Shown piece by piece: positions 3,463 to 56,749 of a DNA stretch of 64,000 nucleotides. The first letter of the stretch is position 1. Each line of letters begins with the position of its first letter. This DNA is from a virus, in IMG/VR virus record IMGVR_UViG_3300005253_000015, positions 1 to 64,000 of that record. The stretch is one strand, 5' to 3'. The notes below the pieces were generated by a model. The model saw nothing but the letters and a program-made list of their open reading frames with translations, was not told where the DNA came from and made no database searches. Position numbers and translations under genes: made by a program.

Positions 3463-3552
3463 AATTAAATTAAAAAATAGGTTAAAATTTAAAAACTTTA
3501 ATGGTTTAATGGTTTTTTGATTTATTTAGTTTTTTTTTAACTAAAAAAATTT

Positions 3553-4658
3553 TACTCGCTACATAGATTTGGTTTTCTTATACAAAATGACTCGTTTATC
3601 TCAATTGGTTTACTCTTTGTTGATGACTCGCTACCTTATTTTGGTTTTCTTATTACCCATGACTCGCTGTTCACCTATGGTTTTCTCGGAAATAATGACT
3701 CGCTCAATCCAATTGGTTTTCTCAACTTTTTTGACTCGTTAATCTAGCTTGGTTTTCTTATACGAAATGACTCGCTTAAGTCTTGTGGTTTCCTTCACTA
3801 AGATGACTCGCTATTTGTCATTGGTTTTCTTTTCTCTCATGACTCGCTAAAAACCGTTGGTTTTCTTAGATATTTTGACTCGCTACTCCGTAGTGGTTTT
3901 CTTCCTTCTTATGACTCGCATTATTTTAATGGTTTTCTATTGTTTAATGACTCGCTATCTTCTAATGGTTTTCCTAAGTCTTTTGACTCGCTTTCTTCAG
4001 ATGGGTTTCTTTTTTATAATAACTCGCTTCAATTTCTTGGTTTTCTAATATTTAGTGACTCGTTTAATTCATATGGTTTTCTATTCTTATATGACTCGCT
4101 ACTCCGTAGTGGTTTTCTTCTCTTATATGACTCGCTTATAGATTGTGGTTTTCTACAGATTGTTGACTCGCTATTTGTCATTGGTTTTCTTTTATTCTTT
4201 GACTCGCTATCTTCTAATGGTTTTCTGATTTTACTTGACTCGCTAATCTGATATGGATTTCTGATTTTACTTGACTCGCTAATCTGATATGGATTTCTTA
4301 TATTTAATGACTCGCTTATTTTTTATGTTTTTCTAAAATCATGTGACTCGCTACCTTATTTTGGTTTTCTTATTACCCATGACTCGCTGTTCACCTATGG
4401 GTTTCTCGGAAATAATGACTCGCTTAATGAATTTAGTTTTCTTATACTTCTTGACTCGCTAACTTATATTGGTTTTCTGTATTTATTTGACTCGCTTAGT
4501 ATTTATGGTTTTCTTGTTTAACATAACTCGCTATTGTTCAATGGTTTTCTTTAATATAATGACTCGTTCGGTAAAATTGGTTTTCTGATATCTAGTGACT
4601 CGCTAATCTCCAATGGGTTTCTTAAGTCTTTTGACTCGCTAAGGCGAAATGGTTTACT
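3553..4658. repeat. 36-bp phased array of two alternating 8-mers
   Basis: Thirty-one units with a period of exactly 36 bp from 3553 to 4633+, without a single insertion or deletion. Each unit is GACTCGCT, 10 variable bases, GGTTTTCT, 10 variable bases. Some variable blocks recur at exact multiples of 36 (720 bp: units at 3625 and 4345; 216 bp: 3877 and 4093; 360 bp: 3805 and 4165; 252 bp: 3949 and 4201), and units at 4237 and 4273 are neighbours in copy. The last GGTTTACT overlaps the stop of the IS110-like gene. The 12-codon frame on the plus strand has six stops, so the array is probably not coding. Likely a protein-binding array. Confidence 0.9.
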
Positions 4659-5568
4659 TGTTCTCTATGGCTTTTTCTTTTGGTACTAAAGTACCTTCCA
4701 TTTTAAGTGCTTTTCTCCATGTAATAATATTATCATGTAGTAAAACACCTTCAACATAATTCTTCTTAGCAGGTAAACCCATTATCTCTCTTGCACAATG
4801 CCAATAGTGGTCTAAAAAGATTTTCCTCATCTTTCTAAGTGCTCTATTATGAGCATGACCTTTACTTAATTTCGTGTCAGTTTTTTTATATGGTTTTCCG
4901 TATACCTCAAAAAGTGTATTAACATTATATTCTCTGTTTAACTGTTTTTCCTTTTCTGTATCATAAATCTGTCTATAATATCCTTTATTATGTATCAATA
5001 ATCCTTTAGATACCATCCATACTAAAGATTTCAATCTGGGATTATAATTAATAGTTTCTCCTTTTTTACGTTTTTGAGCTACTCCATTCACCACTGATTG
5101 ACCAGCATAAGCCCATAACTTACTAACTGTATCTGGTACGACATCACAATATCCTATTTCTTTTACTAGTTTGGCACTGATAACCTTATCTATACCTCGT
5201 ATCTTATCAAGAAAATCAATATATATAGCTTCATCTTTAACCAACTTCCCTAAACTCTTTTTAAACTCACGTTCAAGCGTCTTTACAGTAGGAATAGTTA
5301 CATCAAAAAATTTACTAATATAAGCCCCCTCTTCTGGTGTCACCCTACCTTCTTCTATTAGTTTATTTGCTAAAGGAAGTAACTTAGCATCAGCATATTT
5401 GGTATCAAAGGTTTTGCTCTCCTTTTTCTCTTCGACTTCATCGAAATCAATTCCCATATCAATCTTTCTGAGAATATCACGAATCTGATTCATAAAAATC
5501 TTTCGAACATTCTGGATAGATTCATATTCTACAGCATGTAATCTCAGAAGCACACGTTTTAAATTCAT
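4654..5568 (-). CDS. IS110/IS116/IS902-like protein lacking the DEDD domain
   Basis: 304 residues. The middle (about 118-215) matches the C-terminal domain of IS110-family transposases: a helix-hairpin-helix (IRGIDKVISAKLVKEIG), an AYAGQS segment, then KRKKG...NPRLKSLVW. The N-terminal RuvC-like DEDD domain of true IS110 recombinases is absent; instead there is a helical region. So it is probably a DNA-binding relative, not a complete transposase. It overlaps the ParB-like gene by four bases, and its stop codon lies inside the last unit of the 36-bp array, so transcription would run into the array. A role in binding or recombining the array is an inference. Confidence 0.7.
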   Translation of the reverse strand: MNLKRVLLRLHAVEYESIQNVRKIFMNQIRDILRKIDMGIDFDEVEEKKESKTFDTKYADAKLLPLANKLIEEGRVTPEEGAYISKFFDVTIPTVKTLEREFKKSLGKLVKDEAIYIDFLDKIRGIDKVISAKLVKEIGYCDVVPDTVSKLWAYAGQSVVNGVAQKRKKGETINYNPRLKSLVWMVSKGLLIHNKGYYRQIYDTEKEKQLNREYNVNTLFEVYGKPYKKTDTKLSKGHAHNRALRKMRKIFLDHYWHCAREIMGLPAKKNYVEGVLLHDNIITWRKALKMEGTLVPKEKAIENK

Positions 5569-6422
5569 AAAAGCCCAGCCTCTCTAAGTTGCTTAATTGT
5601 TGGAAAAGACGAATCTTTTTTCAGCATTACATTTTCTATTATATATGTAATTTGATTAGCTATTTCATCCCAGTATCCAAGCTTTGTAGCAATTCCTTTA
5701 ACTTCATTGTATAATGTTTCATAATGATATTTTGATGTCTTTACAGATGCTAATTCTTCCTTTAAATCAATTATTTCTTGTCGAAGGTCTAACTTTGTTT
5801 TTACTTTTTGCTTTGTTACCTTACCTTTTTTTTTAGGAGTTGTTAAATGTTTGATGTAGAGTCTATTGATTGACTTCTCTTTCCTCCCTCTCTCTAATTG
5901 GTCTAAGGCTTTCCTAACCTCTGGATTCGATTCAGCCTCTTTTTTAAGCTCTTTAAATTGATTTAATGCTTTTAATGTAGTATGTATTTCTCTAGCAGTC
6001 CTCTTAGTCTGTGCCAATTCCTGTATTTTACGTAAATTAACATCTTCTTGAACAGCAATACCATGCTCTTTTCTTATCCACTCTTCCATCTCAATACCAA
6101 TCTCTAATTTTGTACCGAGTGCCATATGTCTTCGGTCAAAATTACATAAGCTAATAATATCAACTAATGCTTCAGTACTACTTATATCTAAGTCTAAAAA
6201 ATATGGCTCTATTTCTGCCATTAGACATAGTATTAAACGAATTCGTCCATCTATAATCTCTTGAGTTGATTGGAGTCTTAGAATAGGATAATACTGTCCA
6301 CTCTTCTTCATTCTCTCTGCCATTGAAAGTAGTTCTCTTTCTGGTGGTATAGGGAAAAGTATACATAATGGATGAAACTTATGTTCTTCCATCTGTTTTG
6401 TTATATCTTTAAACACTTTCAT
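5565..6422 (-). CDS. ParB-like partition / nuclease-fold protein
   Basis: 285 residues. Residues about 15-95 fit the ParB/Spo0J N-terminal fold: a PPERELLSMAERMKKSGQYYPI segment, then a strand ending in IDGRIRLILCLMAEIEPY, and later NFDRRHMALGTKLEIGIEM, which corresponds to the NxxRR helix region of ParB proteins. The C-terminus is a long Lys-rich helix and a coiled coil (about 205-240). No ParA-type ATPase is next to it. With the IS110-like gene and the repeat array it may form a centromere-like system. Confidence 0.7.
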   Translation of the reverse strand: MKVFKDITKQMEEHKFHPLCILFPIPPERELLSMAERMKKSGQYYPILRLQSTQEIIDGRIRLILCLMAEIEPYFLDLDISSTEALVDIISLCNFDRRHMALGTKLEIGIEMEEWIRKEHGIAVQEDVNLRKIQELAQTKRTAREIHTTLKALNQFKELKKEAESNPEVRKALDQLERGRKEKSINRLYIKHLTTPKKKGKVTKQKVKTKLDLRQEIIDLKEELASVKTSKYHYETLYNEVKGIATKLGYWDEIANQITYIIENVMLKKDSSFPTIKQLREAGLL

Positions 6423-44742: not shown

Positions 44743-45102
44743 ATGGCAACTGCTATGACGGTCTATGACCAAGATGAGGTTGCGGGACATAATTTGGTAG
44801 TAGCTATAAGCTTTACTTCTGGTGGAGTAGCTAATACACTTACTATTCCCGCTGGACATCCCGACTTTGATTTACGACACGCACATCCCTTAATTGGTGC
44901 TCTGGCACTGTTAAATGAAGCTAATACTGACCAATCTGAATCCTCTCTTATGAACTGTGCTAAAGAGATGAAACGTGCTGTAGCTGCTGATTCTGCTGGT
45001 GAAATGAGTATTATGAGTGCTACTACAGTAAGTCTATATACAATTGATAAAGATGGAATTGCGTTAGTATCTTATAGAGCTGGTGGAGCAAGGCGTTACT
45101 AA
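44743..45102 (+). CDS. Triplet virion-like protein A
   Basis: 119 residues; starts TAMTVYDQDEVAGHNLVVAISFTSGG and ends VSYRAGGARRY. Aligns over the whole length with B and C. GGTGATT 8 bp upstream. Beta-rich, small; likely a spike, fibre or minor capsid subunit. Confidence 0.6.
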   Translation: MATAMTVYDQDEVAGHNLVVAISFTSGGVANTLTIPAGHPDFDLRHAHPLIGALALLNEANTDQSESSLMNCAKEMKRAVAADSAGEMSIMSATTVSLYTIDKDGIALVSYRAGGARRY

Positions 45103-45113
45103 GGTGATTAAAA

Positions 45114-45485
45114 ATGGCTGACCCAATTACTGTTTATGACCAACGACAAGAAGGGCATATAGTTACTATCTTCTTGGATTTCACGTCTGGTGGAGCTACT
45201 ACTGCGGTAGAGCTTACTATTACTGCTGGATATCCAAACCTCGACTTAAGCAAAGCACATCCCATAATTAGTGGGGCTCTGTTTGAATTTGAAGGTGATG
45301 TTATAGTTAATTCTCTTGCTATGCTACCCTCTGCTGAGGTTTCTCGAAGTGATGCTACAGCTCCCGATACTGCTGGTGAATATCAGATAACTGCTGCTAA
45401 TACTTTTAAATATTGTAATGGTGCTGGTAATGCTGATGGTATTATTGCTATCTGTTACTGGGCTGCTGGGAACAAAAACGTATAA
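45114..45485 (+). CDS. Triplet virion-like protein B
   Basis: 123 residues; DPITVYDQRQEGHIVTIFLDFTSGG ... YWAAGNKNV. Paralogue of A and C, with GGTGATT upstream. Confidence 0.6.
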   Translation: MADPITVYDQRQEGHIVTIFLDFTSGGATTAVELTITAGYPNLDLSKAHPIISGALFEFEGDVIVNSLAMLPSAEVSRSDATAPDTAGEYQITAANTFKYCNGAGNADGIIAICYWAAGNKNV

Positions 45486-45496
45486 GGTGATTAAAA

Positions 45497-45868
45497 ATGG
45501 TCGCAACTCCTATAACCGTATATGATAGAGAAGAATGTGCTGGACATATTGTTACTATTTTTCAGTTAGTAAGTTCTACAGGAGCTACTAAGGCAGAGAC
45601 GATTACTCTTAATGCTGGTTATCCTGCTATAGATTTAACTAAAGCTCATCCAATTCTTAGTATTCTTTGGTATAATATTGAAGCTAGTGATTCCAGTGCT
45701 ACTGAAGAAGAATCCAATGCCGATGACGAAATAGCAAGGGGTACTGCTCCTACTGCTTCTGGAGACTTCGATATTGAAGGGTATATGTCATTCAAACTAT
45801 ATCTGACTGCTGATGTAAATGGGCTTGTAATGGTTTCATACTGGGCTGCTGGAAGTAAGCAAGTATAG
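45497..45868 (+). CDS. Triplet virion-like protein C
   Basis: 123 residues; TPITVYDREECAGHIVTIF ... SYWAAGSKQV. Paralogue of A and B. Last gene of the operon; a T-rich tract follows at 45895-45930. Confidence 0.6.
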   Translation: MVATPITVYDREECAGHIVTIFQLVSSTGATKAETITLNAGYPAIDLTKAHPILSILWYNIEASDSSATEEESNADDEIARGTAPTASGDFDIEGYMSFKLYLTADVNGLVMVSYWAAGSKQV

Positions 45869-53924: not shown

Positions 53925-54845
53925 ATGAAGAAAATAGAGTTTAAAAGACAGTTTTTTATAAAAGATTTATTCATACCTGAAAGAGTTATTAATTGTTTTA
54001 ATTGTATTGAATTTGAATCTTATCAAATATTTAGTTATTGTATTGAGAATGATTTGTTTATAATCCCAGAGAATGGGTTTATATTTATACCAATAAAGAG
54101 TATATCTGATTATAAAAGTATGGTTAAGATATTTAACGAAACTAATATATGTAATAATAGCTATTTATATTTAATAATAGAAGAACAATCCCTTCTTGAT
54201 GCGGTACTTTCCACTATTGTAGATAAAAGGTTTAGTATTTTAATCACTAAAGATTTAAAAATAGATTTTGTTAAGTACTGGAATAATACAATTGGAAAAG
54301 AATGGATTTCTAAAAACAGAATCATTAAAAAGATAAAAATAGACTATCCTAATTATGATAGACAAATTAATGAAATGATTAGTATATTCAATGAGGAATT
54401 TATAAGATTTTTCTTATTAGATTTTGATTATGTATCATTTGAAAAGATAAAAATAGAAGAGATACACAAACTAAAATTCTGGATACGTAATTTTATTGGC
54501 TGGACAAAATTAAAAGATGTTGATTCAATAGAAATCATATCAACTCCATTTGTTAGAAAGATTTTTGTTTCTGATGAGTTGGTCTTATATATGGATAATA
54601 AGAAAAAAGACATATGGTCATTTGATTTAATGTTATATTTAAAAGACGATGGAGAAAGTATGCCAATGAGAGAGCTCAATCTTCTTAGGAAATATATTGA
54701 CTTTGTACCAAATGCTATGTACACAGAATCTAAAATAACAAATTGGTTTTTAATGGATTATGCTCAATGTAAAGAAATTCAGGGAAGTTTAAATGAAATA
54801 CCATTAATGATGGGATTAATAAATAGGTGGTTATATGATTTTTAA
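53925..54845 (+). CDS. Hypothetical protein upstream of radical SAM
   Basis: 306 residues, soluble, rich in Ile, Phe, Asp and Lys; no Cys cluster or known motif. It overlaps the radical SAM start by 11 bases, so it belongs to the same operon; it could be a leader-recognition or partner protein for the modifying enzyme. I cannot show a RiPP recognition element by eye. Confidence 0.55.
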   Translation: MKKIEFKRQFFIKDLFIPERVINCFNCIEFESYQIFSYCIENDLFIIPENGFIFIPIKSISDYKSMVKIFNETNICNNSYLYLIIEEQSLLDAVLSTIVDKRFSILITKDLKIDFVKYWNNTIGKEWISKNRIIKKIKIDYPNYDRQINEMISIFNEEFIRFFLLDFDYVSFEKIKIEEIHKLKFWIRNFIGWTKLKDVDSIEIISTPFVRKIFVSDELVLYMDNKKKDIWSFDLMLYLKDDGESMPMRELNLLRKYIDFVPNAMYTESKITNWFLMDYAQCKEIQGSLNEIPLMMGLINRWLYDF

Positions 54846-56010
54846 TGTTGTGTGTCCAGATATTTTGATTTCAACAAATTGTAATATGAGATGTAAGTAT
54901 TGTTTTGAGAAGGATAAAATTAACGAGGTTATGGATGAAGAAAGAATATTAGAATATTATTCACATAATCCCTGTACAGGAACATTTCCTATTGGTGGTG
55001 AACCTTTTCTAAATTTAGATTTACTCTTCAAAATAATGGATACAGTAGAAAATAATAAAATTATACAAGAGAAAAGAAAAAAAACGTTATTACAGAATTT
55101 AAAATGTGTTATTACTAATGGAACTTTAATTAAACAAAACATACAGAAGATTAAGGATTATGGATTAATATTACAGATAAGTTTCGATGGTTCTAAAAAA
55201 GTTCATGATACTTATAGGGTTTTTCCTAATGGAAAGGGAACGTATGATAAAATCATTGAAGGATTAGAACTTTGCGTAAAAGAAGGAATTGAATGGTCTA
55301 TTCATGGTGTTGTAGCTAAAGATACTATTAAATATTTCTATGATACGTTTGTATGGTTTTTTGAGATATATAAAAAATACAAAGAATTAGATATAGCAAT
55401 AGATTTTATGAAGAATAACGTATTTCAAGTAATATTCGAACAAGATTATTCTGATAAAGATGTTGATGAACTAGTCAGACAGTTTCATAAAATTGCTGAA
55501 TGGATTTATTCAAGAGATTATATGACTATTAAACAAAAAGACCAATTATTTCATAACTTCTTAGAAAGACGTGGTGGTGTTTGTTCAGCTGGAACAACAT
55601 TAATAGCTTTTGATAATAATTTAGATATGTTTCCATGTCATAGACTTGCTGTTGTACCAGAGAAAGAAAATTATTACCTAGGAAATGCTATGGATATTAA
55701 GACTATTAAAAATTTCAAACAATATAACTCTTACTATAATATTGGGAGAGGTTATAAATACATGTATTCAGCTATACAACATAACCACGATTACAAAGAC
55801 AAGGAGAGTTTGAGATGGTTTATGTGGTGTCCTGCTACAAATTTACAAACATCTGAAAATGTTTATTATCAGAATGCTAAATATAATGTGATGTTTGTTG
55901 AAGTAAATAGAATGGTTAGAGCACTTAAGAAAATATATTATCAAAATAGTGATTTAATAAAAGAAAAGGATAATGCCAATAAGCTCAGGAAGCCCGATAC
56001 TAGCAAGTGA
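54835..56010 (+). CDS. Radical SAM/SPASM-like enzyme
   Basis: 391 residues. Cys16-x3-Cys20-x2-Cys23 (CNMRCKYC) binds the [4Fe-4S] SAM cluster; GGEPF at 54-58 is the SAM methionine loop; QISFDG is the typical beta-4 segment. The C-terminal CSAGTTLIAFDNNLDMFPCHR and later WCP fit a SPASM or twitch auxiliary-cluster domain, as in peptide-modifying enzymes and anaerobic sulfatase-maturating enzymes. Start overlaps the upstream gene by 11 bases and its end overlaps the Cys-repeat gene by 38. Substrate inferred from that coupling: the Cys-repeat protein. Confidence 0.8.
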   Translation: MIFNVVCPDILISTNCNMRCKYCFEKDKINEVMDEERILEYYSHNPCTGTFPIGGEPFLNLDLLFKIMDTVENNKIIQEKRKKTLLQNLKCVITNGTLIKQNIQKIKDYGLILQISFDGSKKVHDTYRVFPNGKGTYDKIIEGLELCVKEGIEWSIHGVVAKDTIKYFYDTFVWFFEIYKKYKELDIAIDFMKNNVFQVIFEQDYSDKDVDELVRQFHKIAEWIYSRDYMTIKQKDQLFHNFLERRGGVCSAGTTLIAFDNNLDMFPCHRLAVVPEKENYYLGNAMDIKTIKNFKQYNSYYNIGRGYKYMYSAIQHNHDYKDKESLRWFMWCPATNLQTSENVYYQNAKYNVMFVEVNRMVRALKKIYYQNSDLIKEKDNANKLRKPDTSK

Positions 56011-56749
56011 TGTAAATGCTATTATCGCTAAGATAAATTCAGAGGAAAATAATAGAACTGGGTTAGGTCTGTCTGATTTACCAGATATGATTGTTAGTAA
56101 TCCTTGTTTGGCTTCAGACCACGATTCTTGGAGAACTCGTAATGATGCTATTAATGCTTTTCATTGTTATTGTGAAGCAGATGGAGGGCGTGATGCTGGT
56201 GATACTACTAAGACAGGTACAACATTAGGTCTAACTGCTCCTAATGTTACTTCTGGTAATTCAATGTTAGCTTCTCAACTTACAACTTTAGAAACAGATA
56301 TAGATAATTTAGTAGCTCAATGTGATTGTGATACTTATGTTTGTAGTTGTGTAGGTAATTGTACTACTGTTTGTACTTGTAATACAAATGTATGTACTTG
56401 TGTAGGTAATTGTACTAGTGTCTGTTCTTGTAATACTAATGTTTGTACTTGTGTTTCCCAATGTGGTTGTAATACTAATGTATGTACTTGTGTAAGTCAA
56501 GGGTGTGCCTGTAATACTATTAGAACACCTGAATGTCTTGATTGGACATTCATATGTGGTTGCCAAAGTCAGGGGTGTAGTTGTAATCAATTATGTACTT
56601 GCGTAAATCAAGGCTGTGGTTGTAATCAATTGTGTACATGTGTAAGCAATGTGATTGCACAGTGTACTTGTAATCAATTGTGTACATGTGTAAGTAATGT
56701 GATTGCACAGTGTACTTGTAATAAAGTCTGTGGGTGTGAATATAACTAA
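55973..56749 (+). CDS. Cys-repeat fibre-like protein, candidate rSAM substrate
   Basis: 258 residues with 42 Cys. The N-terminus (PISSGSPILASDVNAIIAKIN) has the I-x-A-S-D-x-N pattern I know from phage tail/virion proteins. From about residue 100 the chain is repeats of VCTC-V-GNC-T-VCTCN-TN type, and from about 195 of NQLCTCVSN-VIAQCTC (48-bp DNA repeats near 56624-56720). There is no signal peptide. The dense CxC pattern and its overlap with the radical SAM gene suggest thioether or other Cys cross-links, or metal binding. Confidence 0.75.
   Translation: MPISSGSPILASDVNAIIAKINSEENNRTGLGLSDLPDMIVSNPCLASDHDSWRTRNDAINAFHCYCEADGGRDAGDTTKTGTTLGLTAPNVTSGNSMLASQLTTLETDIDNLVAQCDCDTYVCSCVGNCTTVCTCNTNVCTCVGNCTSVCSCNTNVCTCVSQCGCNTNVCTCVSQGCACNTIRTPECLDWTFICGCQSQGCSCNQLCTCVNQGCGCNQLCTCVSNVIAQCTCNQLCTCVSNVIAQCTCNKVCGCEYN

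What the first reader, a model, noticed from the sequence alone, without database searches (positions are those of the whole stretch)
3553..4658. Thirty-one units of an exactly 36-bp array with two alternating conserved 8-mers
GACTCGCT and GGTTTTCT alternate every 18 bp with 10-bp variable blocks and no indel over 1.1 kb. Such strict phasing with free spacers means spacing is under selection. Copied spacers at exact multiples of 36 show that the array grows or is shuffled by unit-wise recombination. It fits neither CRISPR (repeats too short) nor a gene (six stops).
Basis: seen in the sequence. Interest (0 to 1): 0.85.

Follow-up and report, generated by a model that had tools for sequence, protein, structure and literature searches.

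The report
A viral TIGR-TasA guide-RNA array
The strictly phased repeat is a guide-RNA array of the recently described TIGR-Tas family, read together with a nuclease-less TasA protein and a ParB-like protein in an archaeal-type virus; what its 31 two-part guides aim at is still unknown.

Summary
Window 3552-4667 holds 31 units of exactly 36 bp: two 9-bp repeats (TGACTCGCT, TGGTTTTCT) and two 9-bp spacers. It is a dual-repeat TIGR array. On the minus strand it follows a ParB-like gene (5565-6422) and tasA (4654-5568). The TasA protein passes NCBI's TIGR-Tas model (146.6 bits, cut-off 100) and folds like the TasR and TasH tigRNA proteins, without a nuclease domain. The same repeats occur in about 95 IMG/VR contigs; in all 69 with a tasA beside a parsed array, array and gene share a strand. 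An edge-repeat pair varies as G-C, G-U or A-U but never A-C (1190 units), so RNA is the selected form. Arrays evolve by whole-unit and half-unit (18-bp) shuffling and by point mutation. I found no target in the virus's own 111 kb; four guides searched in IMG/VR gave only chance-like matches. Best reading: tigRNAs lead TasA, probably with the ParB-like partner, to foreign DNA without cutting it. New member of a known kind; TasA-ParB operons were already noted by Faure et al. 2025. The binding-site/plasmid-stability idea is not supported. Targets remain open.

The parts
3552..4667 (-). TIGR array, 31 units of 36 bp. On the transcribed (-) strand: edge repeat AGCGAGTCA, spacer A (9), loop repeat AGAAAACCA, spacer B (9)
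   Evidence: same repeats in about 95 IMG/VR loci
4668..4672 (-). 5'-truncated edge repeat (AGCCA) that opens the array, inside the 3' end of tasA
   Evidence: in 36 of 56 relatives the same half edge is joined to the tasA stop codon
3531..3560 (-). 3'-truncated edge repeat AGCGAGT followed by T7 and an A/T-rich inverted repeat: probable transcription end
   Evidence: sequence; termination itself is inferred
4654..5568 (-). tasA, 304 aa, nuclease-less Nop-domain protein of the TIGR-Tas family
   Evidence: NCBIfam TIGR_Tas_endo 146.6 bits with cut-off 100; TasR 1.2e-28 and TasH 1.3e-12 in PDB; family profile to TasH 2.7e-54; AF2 pLDDT 79, Foldseek top hits TasR and TasH
5565..6422 (-). tasParB-like gene, 285 aa; its 3' end overlaps the start of tasA by 4 bp; ParB_N-like N-terminus
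   Evidence: BLASTP 2e-6 (single comparison) to a ParB_N protein of an array locus; weak profile match to ParB_N above all 60 shuffles; no Pfam hit

Best explanation
The locus is a dual-repeat TIGR-TasA system with a ParB-like partner, carried by an archaeal-type virus. The operon tasParB-tasA-array is transcribed on the minus strand. The array transcript is cut within each edge repeat into 31 tigRNAs of 36 nt (inferred from Faure et al. 2025). A TasA dimer holds one tigRNA by its two box C/D-like repeats, and the two 9-nt spacers pair with opposite strands of one 18-bp DNA site (inferred from TasR/TasH). TasA has no nuclease, so it binds and bends the target instead of cutting it. Most likely it blocks or marks foreign DNA (rival virus, plasmid, or host), and the ParB-like protein may load there. 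Shown here: anatomy, family membership, transcribed strand, RNA pairing, absence of self-targets, mode of array growth. Inferred: processing, DNA binding, role of ParB, identity of the targets. The confidence given is for the identification as TIGR-TasA; RNA-guided non-cutting DNA binding I put at about 0.8, a role against other mobile elements at about 0.5, a ParB loading step at about 0.25.
For: TasA passes the curated TIGR-Tas model and its predicted fold is closest to TasR-tigRNA-DNA and TasH-tigRNA complexes, then IS621. Anatomy matches Faure et al. (PMC12045711): 36-nt unit, two alternating repeats, 9-nt spacers, A-rich loop repeat ending in CCA, truncated edge repeats at both ends, array downstream of tas. 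Pattern search found 109 stretches in IMG/VR, about 95 with arrays, 72 TasA homologues, array strand = tasA strand in 69 of 69. Edge position 2 of the 3' half and position 7 of the 5' half of one tigRNA: G-U 407, G-C 391, A-U 387, A-C 0 of 1190. The same pattern is rarely an array in cellular genomes (5 of 118). No 18-bp self-target. ParB_N-like genes sit beside arrays of other loci too, as in Faure's tasParB operons.
Against: No RNA or binding data for this locus. No natural target found: 873 spacer pairs against 1 Mb of related loci show no excess, and four guides in IMG/VR gave 0, 0, 4 and 5 matches in unrelated contexts. The ParB assignment is weak: no Pfam hit and the single-sequence model failed. 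Host not identified.
Confidence: 0.93

Rival explanations
1. The array is a DNA-level site: a centromere or iteron array bound by the ParB-like protein (and the 4654 protein) for partition or copy control of the viral genome.
For: A ParB_N-like gene lies in the operon and the phasing is rigid.
Against: Accepted G-U pairs and the complete lack of A-C between the two edge halves point to RNA pairing. The array is strand-locked to tasA in 69 of 69 loci and most of those loci have no ParB neighbour. Half of each unit is free sequence, which a centromere would not need.
Confidence: 0.04
2. It is a TIGR-TasA system, but the guides regulate host genes (host take-over) instead of acting on rival mobile elements.
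For: Related viruses keep homologous units with point-mutated spacers, as if tracking slowly drifting targets; no match to the own genome.
Against: No codon-like period in spacer substitutions (0.278 against 0.251 expected, p about 0.3); host genome unknown, so not tested directly.
Confidence: 0.35
3. The locus is a variant IS110-type transposon or bridge-RNA remnant, since the protein is annotated as transposase in some libraries.
For: Weak Pfam Transposase_20 (E 0.012), PHROG 'transposase' 1.1e-42, NCBIfam IS110 8.2e-5.
Against: TIGR-Tas model far stronger than IS110 (9.6e-43 against 8.2e-5); predicted model lacks the beta-sheet RuvC/DEDD domain; a 31-unit array is not a bridge RNA.
Confidence: 0.02

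Closest known systems
TIGR-TasA with tasParB (Faure et al. 2025, PMC12045711, fig. S14 as described in its text)
   Same: Nuclease-less Tas protein in an operon with a ParB-like gene and a dual-repeat array; mobile-element setting
   Different: 31 units against the usual 5-15; the text gives 10-nt repeats for the tasParB loci, here 9 nt; the ParB-like protein is very divergent
TIGR-TasR (Thermoproteota archaeon TaTIGR, PDB 9mty)
   Same: Nop fold, A-rich loop repeat ending in CCA, edge-repeat covariation, 9-nt spacers
   Different: TasR cuts DNA with a RuvC domain; absent here
TIGR-TasH (Salicola phage, PDB 21kl/9w04)
   Same: Best profile match of the family (2.7e-54), tigRNA-guided
   Different: HNH nuclease absent here; 16-nt combined spacer in SpTIGR against 18 here
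Microcystis phage Mvi-JY20 TasA array (PP438412.1)
   Same: 36-bp dual-repeat array TGCGAGCC/ACGAAACCC directly after tasA
   Different: about 10 units, bacterial host, rho-independent terminator, unannotated in the record
CRISPR arrays
   Same: Guide-RNA arrays with spacers
   Different: two alternating 9-bp repeats, 9-bp spacers, half-unit shuffling

Membership tests
TIGR-Tas | Tas protein with Nop domain (TIGR-Tas family model) | tested here: met
   NCBIfam NF052498 146.6 bits, cut-off 100; fold match to TasR/TasH
TIGR-Tas | Array of two alternating 8-12-nt repeats with about 9-nt spacers next to tas | tested here: met
   relatives
TIGR-Tas | Truncated edge repeats at both ends of the array, then a terminator | tested here: met
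   (T7 run; termination itself not tested)
TIGR-Tas | Conserved box pairing within repeats (edge covariation) | tested here: met
   G-U/G-C/A-U, no A-C, in 1190 units of the related loci
TIGR-Tas | Array processed into 36-nt tigRNAs bound by Tas | not testable with these tools
   needs small-RNA sequencing
TIGR-Tas | tigRNA-guided binding of an 18-bp DNA site by tandem spacers | tested here: inconclusive
   no target found in own genome, relatives or IMG/VR
TasA subtype | No RuvC or HNH nuclease domain | tested here: met
   no HNH/RuvC Pfam hit; almost all-helical model with two short strands only
TasA-TasParB operon | ParB-like gene operonic with tasA | tested here: inconclusive
   4-bp overlap with tasA; ParB_N similarity 2e-6 in one pairwise comparison, weak profile match, no Pfam hit
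CRISPR | Single repeat of about 25-36 nt with spacers of like size | tested here: not met
   two 9-bp repeats, 9-bp spacers

The most novel reading that the evidence does not exclude
An RNA-programmed ParB loader: 31 tigRNAs steer TasA to 18-bp sites on foreign DNA, where it nucleates a ParB-like protein that spreads or clamps and silences or mis-segregates the target without cutting it, while arrays renew themselves by half-unit shuffling.
Probability: 0.25. Interest if true: 0.85.

Novelty: new member of a known kind. Interest (0 to 1): 0.5.

Why it matters
TIGR-Tas is a young family whose natural targets, array growth and TasA function are stated as open questions. This locus has about twice the usual number of guides and a ParB-like partner, and it led to about 95 viral arrays with the same repeats. 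Those arrays show RNA pairing by covariation, a tas stop codon joined to the first half repeat, divergence of homologous guides by point mutation, and 31 within-array half-unit reuses against 0.5 expected. They make array evolution and targeting directly testable.

Tried and rejected
Self-targeting: 18-bp targets, gaps 0-2, no better than shuffled pairings. Targets among 1 Mb of related loci: 0 exact, 3 with one mismatch, like controls. IMG/VR scans for four guides: 0, 0, 4, 5 matches, unrelated contexts. Codon periodicity of spacer substitutions: not significant. Close relatives of TasA, the ParB-like protein or the AAA ATPase in viral contigs by peptide patterns: none. Plasmids: none. Host by TasA in 887 archaeal genomes: one hit at 1e-10 or better, without a comparable array. 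ParB structure: single-sequence model too poor to use. A first hhalign run was set to global by mistake and repeated. The Acidianus tailed spindle virus paper, where a like array was first seen, is not held.

Full report
Observation. The window holds 31 consecutive 36-bp units at 3552-4667 with no indel. Each unit is TGACTCGCT, 9 bp, TGGTTTTCT, 9 bp on the plus strand. The conserved blocks are 9-mers, not 8-mers, since the leading T is in all 31 copies of both. The best phase scores 16.7 of 18 repeat positions per unit and the next 9.5. No other part of the window reaches this 36-bp periodicity. The window lies in a 111,456-bp IMG/VR virus record.

What it is. The neighbouring 304-aa protein (4654-5568, minus) gives only a weak transposase hit in Pfam, but phmmer matches TasR (1.2e-28) and TasH (1.3e-12) among solved structures, and NCBI's TIGR-Tas model gives 146.6 bits with a cut-off of 100. 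A profile of 36 relatives hits TasH at 2.7e-54, TasR at 3.2e-37 and the IS621 transposase at 7e-4. The AlphaFold model (pLDDT 79) is nearly all helical, with no RuvC or HNH fold, and its best Foldseek matches are TasR-tigRNA-DNA and TasH-tigRNA complexes. It is thus a TasA. Faure et al. 2025 (PMC12045711; [quoted passage not shown] All of these except the processed RNAs are seen here on the minus strand: edge AGCGAGTCA, loop AGAAAACCA, a 5'-truncated edge AGCCA inside the end of tasA, and a 3'-truncated edge AGCGAGT before T7.

Relatives. The repeat pair occurs in 109 stretches of IMG/VR. About 95 hold arrays, up to 37 units, and 72 TasA-like proteins, the window's included, were found beside them. 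In all 69 loci where both could be placed, array and tasA are on one strand; 53 arrays lie downstream. In 36 of 56 loci the first full edge is 30-31 bp after the tasA stop, so that a half edge repeat is joined to the stop codon, for example TGAGCCA. The same pattern in cellular genomes is mostly chance: 5 of 118 matches were arrays. The loci were found by their repeats, so likeness of repeats among them is by selection; the proteins are only 22-30% identical to the window's.

RNA-level selection. In each tigRNA, position 7 of the 5' edge half and position 2 of the 3' edge half are G-U 407 times, G-C 391, A-U 387 and A-C never, in 1190 units. Within one edge copy A-C occurs 8 times, so pairing between the two ends of one processed tigRNA is the better description. 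This agrees with the covarying edge pair in the TasR structure and speaks against a DNA-binding-site array. Units of related loci are not independent, so counts are not independent events, but no locus is of the A-C type.

The partner gene. The 285-aa protein at 5565-6422 overlaps tasA by 4 bp. It has no Pfam hit, but its N-terminus matches a ParB_N protein found in another array locus (2e-6) and aligns to ParB_N at the expected motif, above all 60 shuffles. ParB_N-like genes lie beside arrays in several other loci, and Faure et al. report tasParB-tasA operons. I take it as tasParB-like with moderate confidence.

Array growth. Within arrays, 26 unit pairs are whole copies, nearly all at multiples of 36 bp, and 31 pairs share one spacer with a clearly different partner, against 0.5 expected from between-locus comparison. 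Six of the 31 are in the window. Recombination therefore also breaks at the loop repeat and re-pairs half-guides. Related viruses keep homologous units with point-mutated spacers. Substitutions show no significant codon period.

Targets. By the geometry that I derived from the cleavage rules of Faure et al. (A followed by the reverse complement of B, 0-2 bp gap), no guide matches the virus's own genome better than shuffled pairs. 873 pairs show no excess in 1 Mb of related loci. Four window guides in IMG/VR gave 0, 0, 4 and 5 matches in unrelated contexts. Targets stay unknown, as in the original work.

Virus. A TFIIB-like protein (NCBIfam 4.6e-11, below that model's curated cut-off), an AAA ATPase, an ERCC4-type nuclease with an MCM-like end and ThyX point to an archaeal virus; the host was not found.

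Verdict. New member of a known kind: a long TIGR-TasA array with a ParB-like partner. The mechanism of RNA-guided, non-cutting DNA binding is likely by family; the purpose and the ParB step are inference.

Noticed in passing
L115 3500-3890 (Microcystis phage Mvi-JY20, PP438412.1): Unannotated dual-repeat TIGR array of about 10 units (TGCGAGCC/ACGAAACCC) directly after an unannotated TasA, ending in a rho-independent terminator; an isolate with known host, good for target work.
   Followed up: partly
L114 2008-2344 (Mycobacterium phage BPBiebs31), L116 2036-2477 (Rhodococcus phage Peregrin), L117 1925-2198 (Gordonia phage Morrissey): Non-coding gaps before TasA-like genes (one annotated transposase) look like stem-loop TIGR arrays; in BPBiebs31 near the repressor and superinfection immunity genes.
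   Followed up: partly
window 54835-56749: Radical SAM gene followed by a gene for a cysteine-rich tandem-repeat protein (tandem repeats 56326-56722): possible peptide-modifying pair carried by a virus.
   Followed up: no
window 44743-45868: Three tandem paralogous genes of about 120 aa, perhaps virion proteins.
   Followed up: no
L023 9814-11153: Longest related array seen, 37 units, with several half-spacer reuses.
   Followed up: partly
L236, L238: Small cellular genomes (about 0.5-0.7 Mb) with TasA-like genes and 36-bp periodic DNA beside them.
   Followed up: partly
L264 about 770-1200: Archaeal genome with a TasA-like hit near a 15/30-bp coding-like repeat (GACATCGAGGCACG), not a TIGR array.
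   Followed up: no
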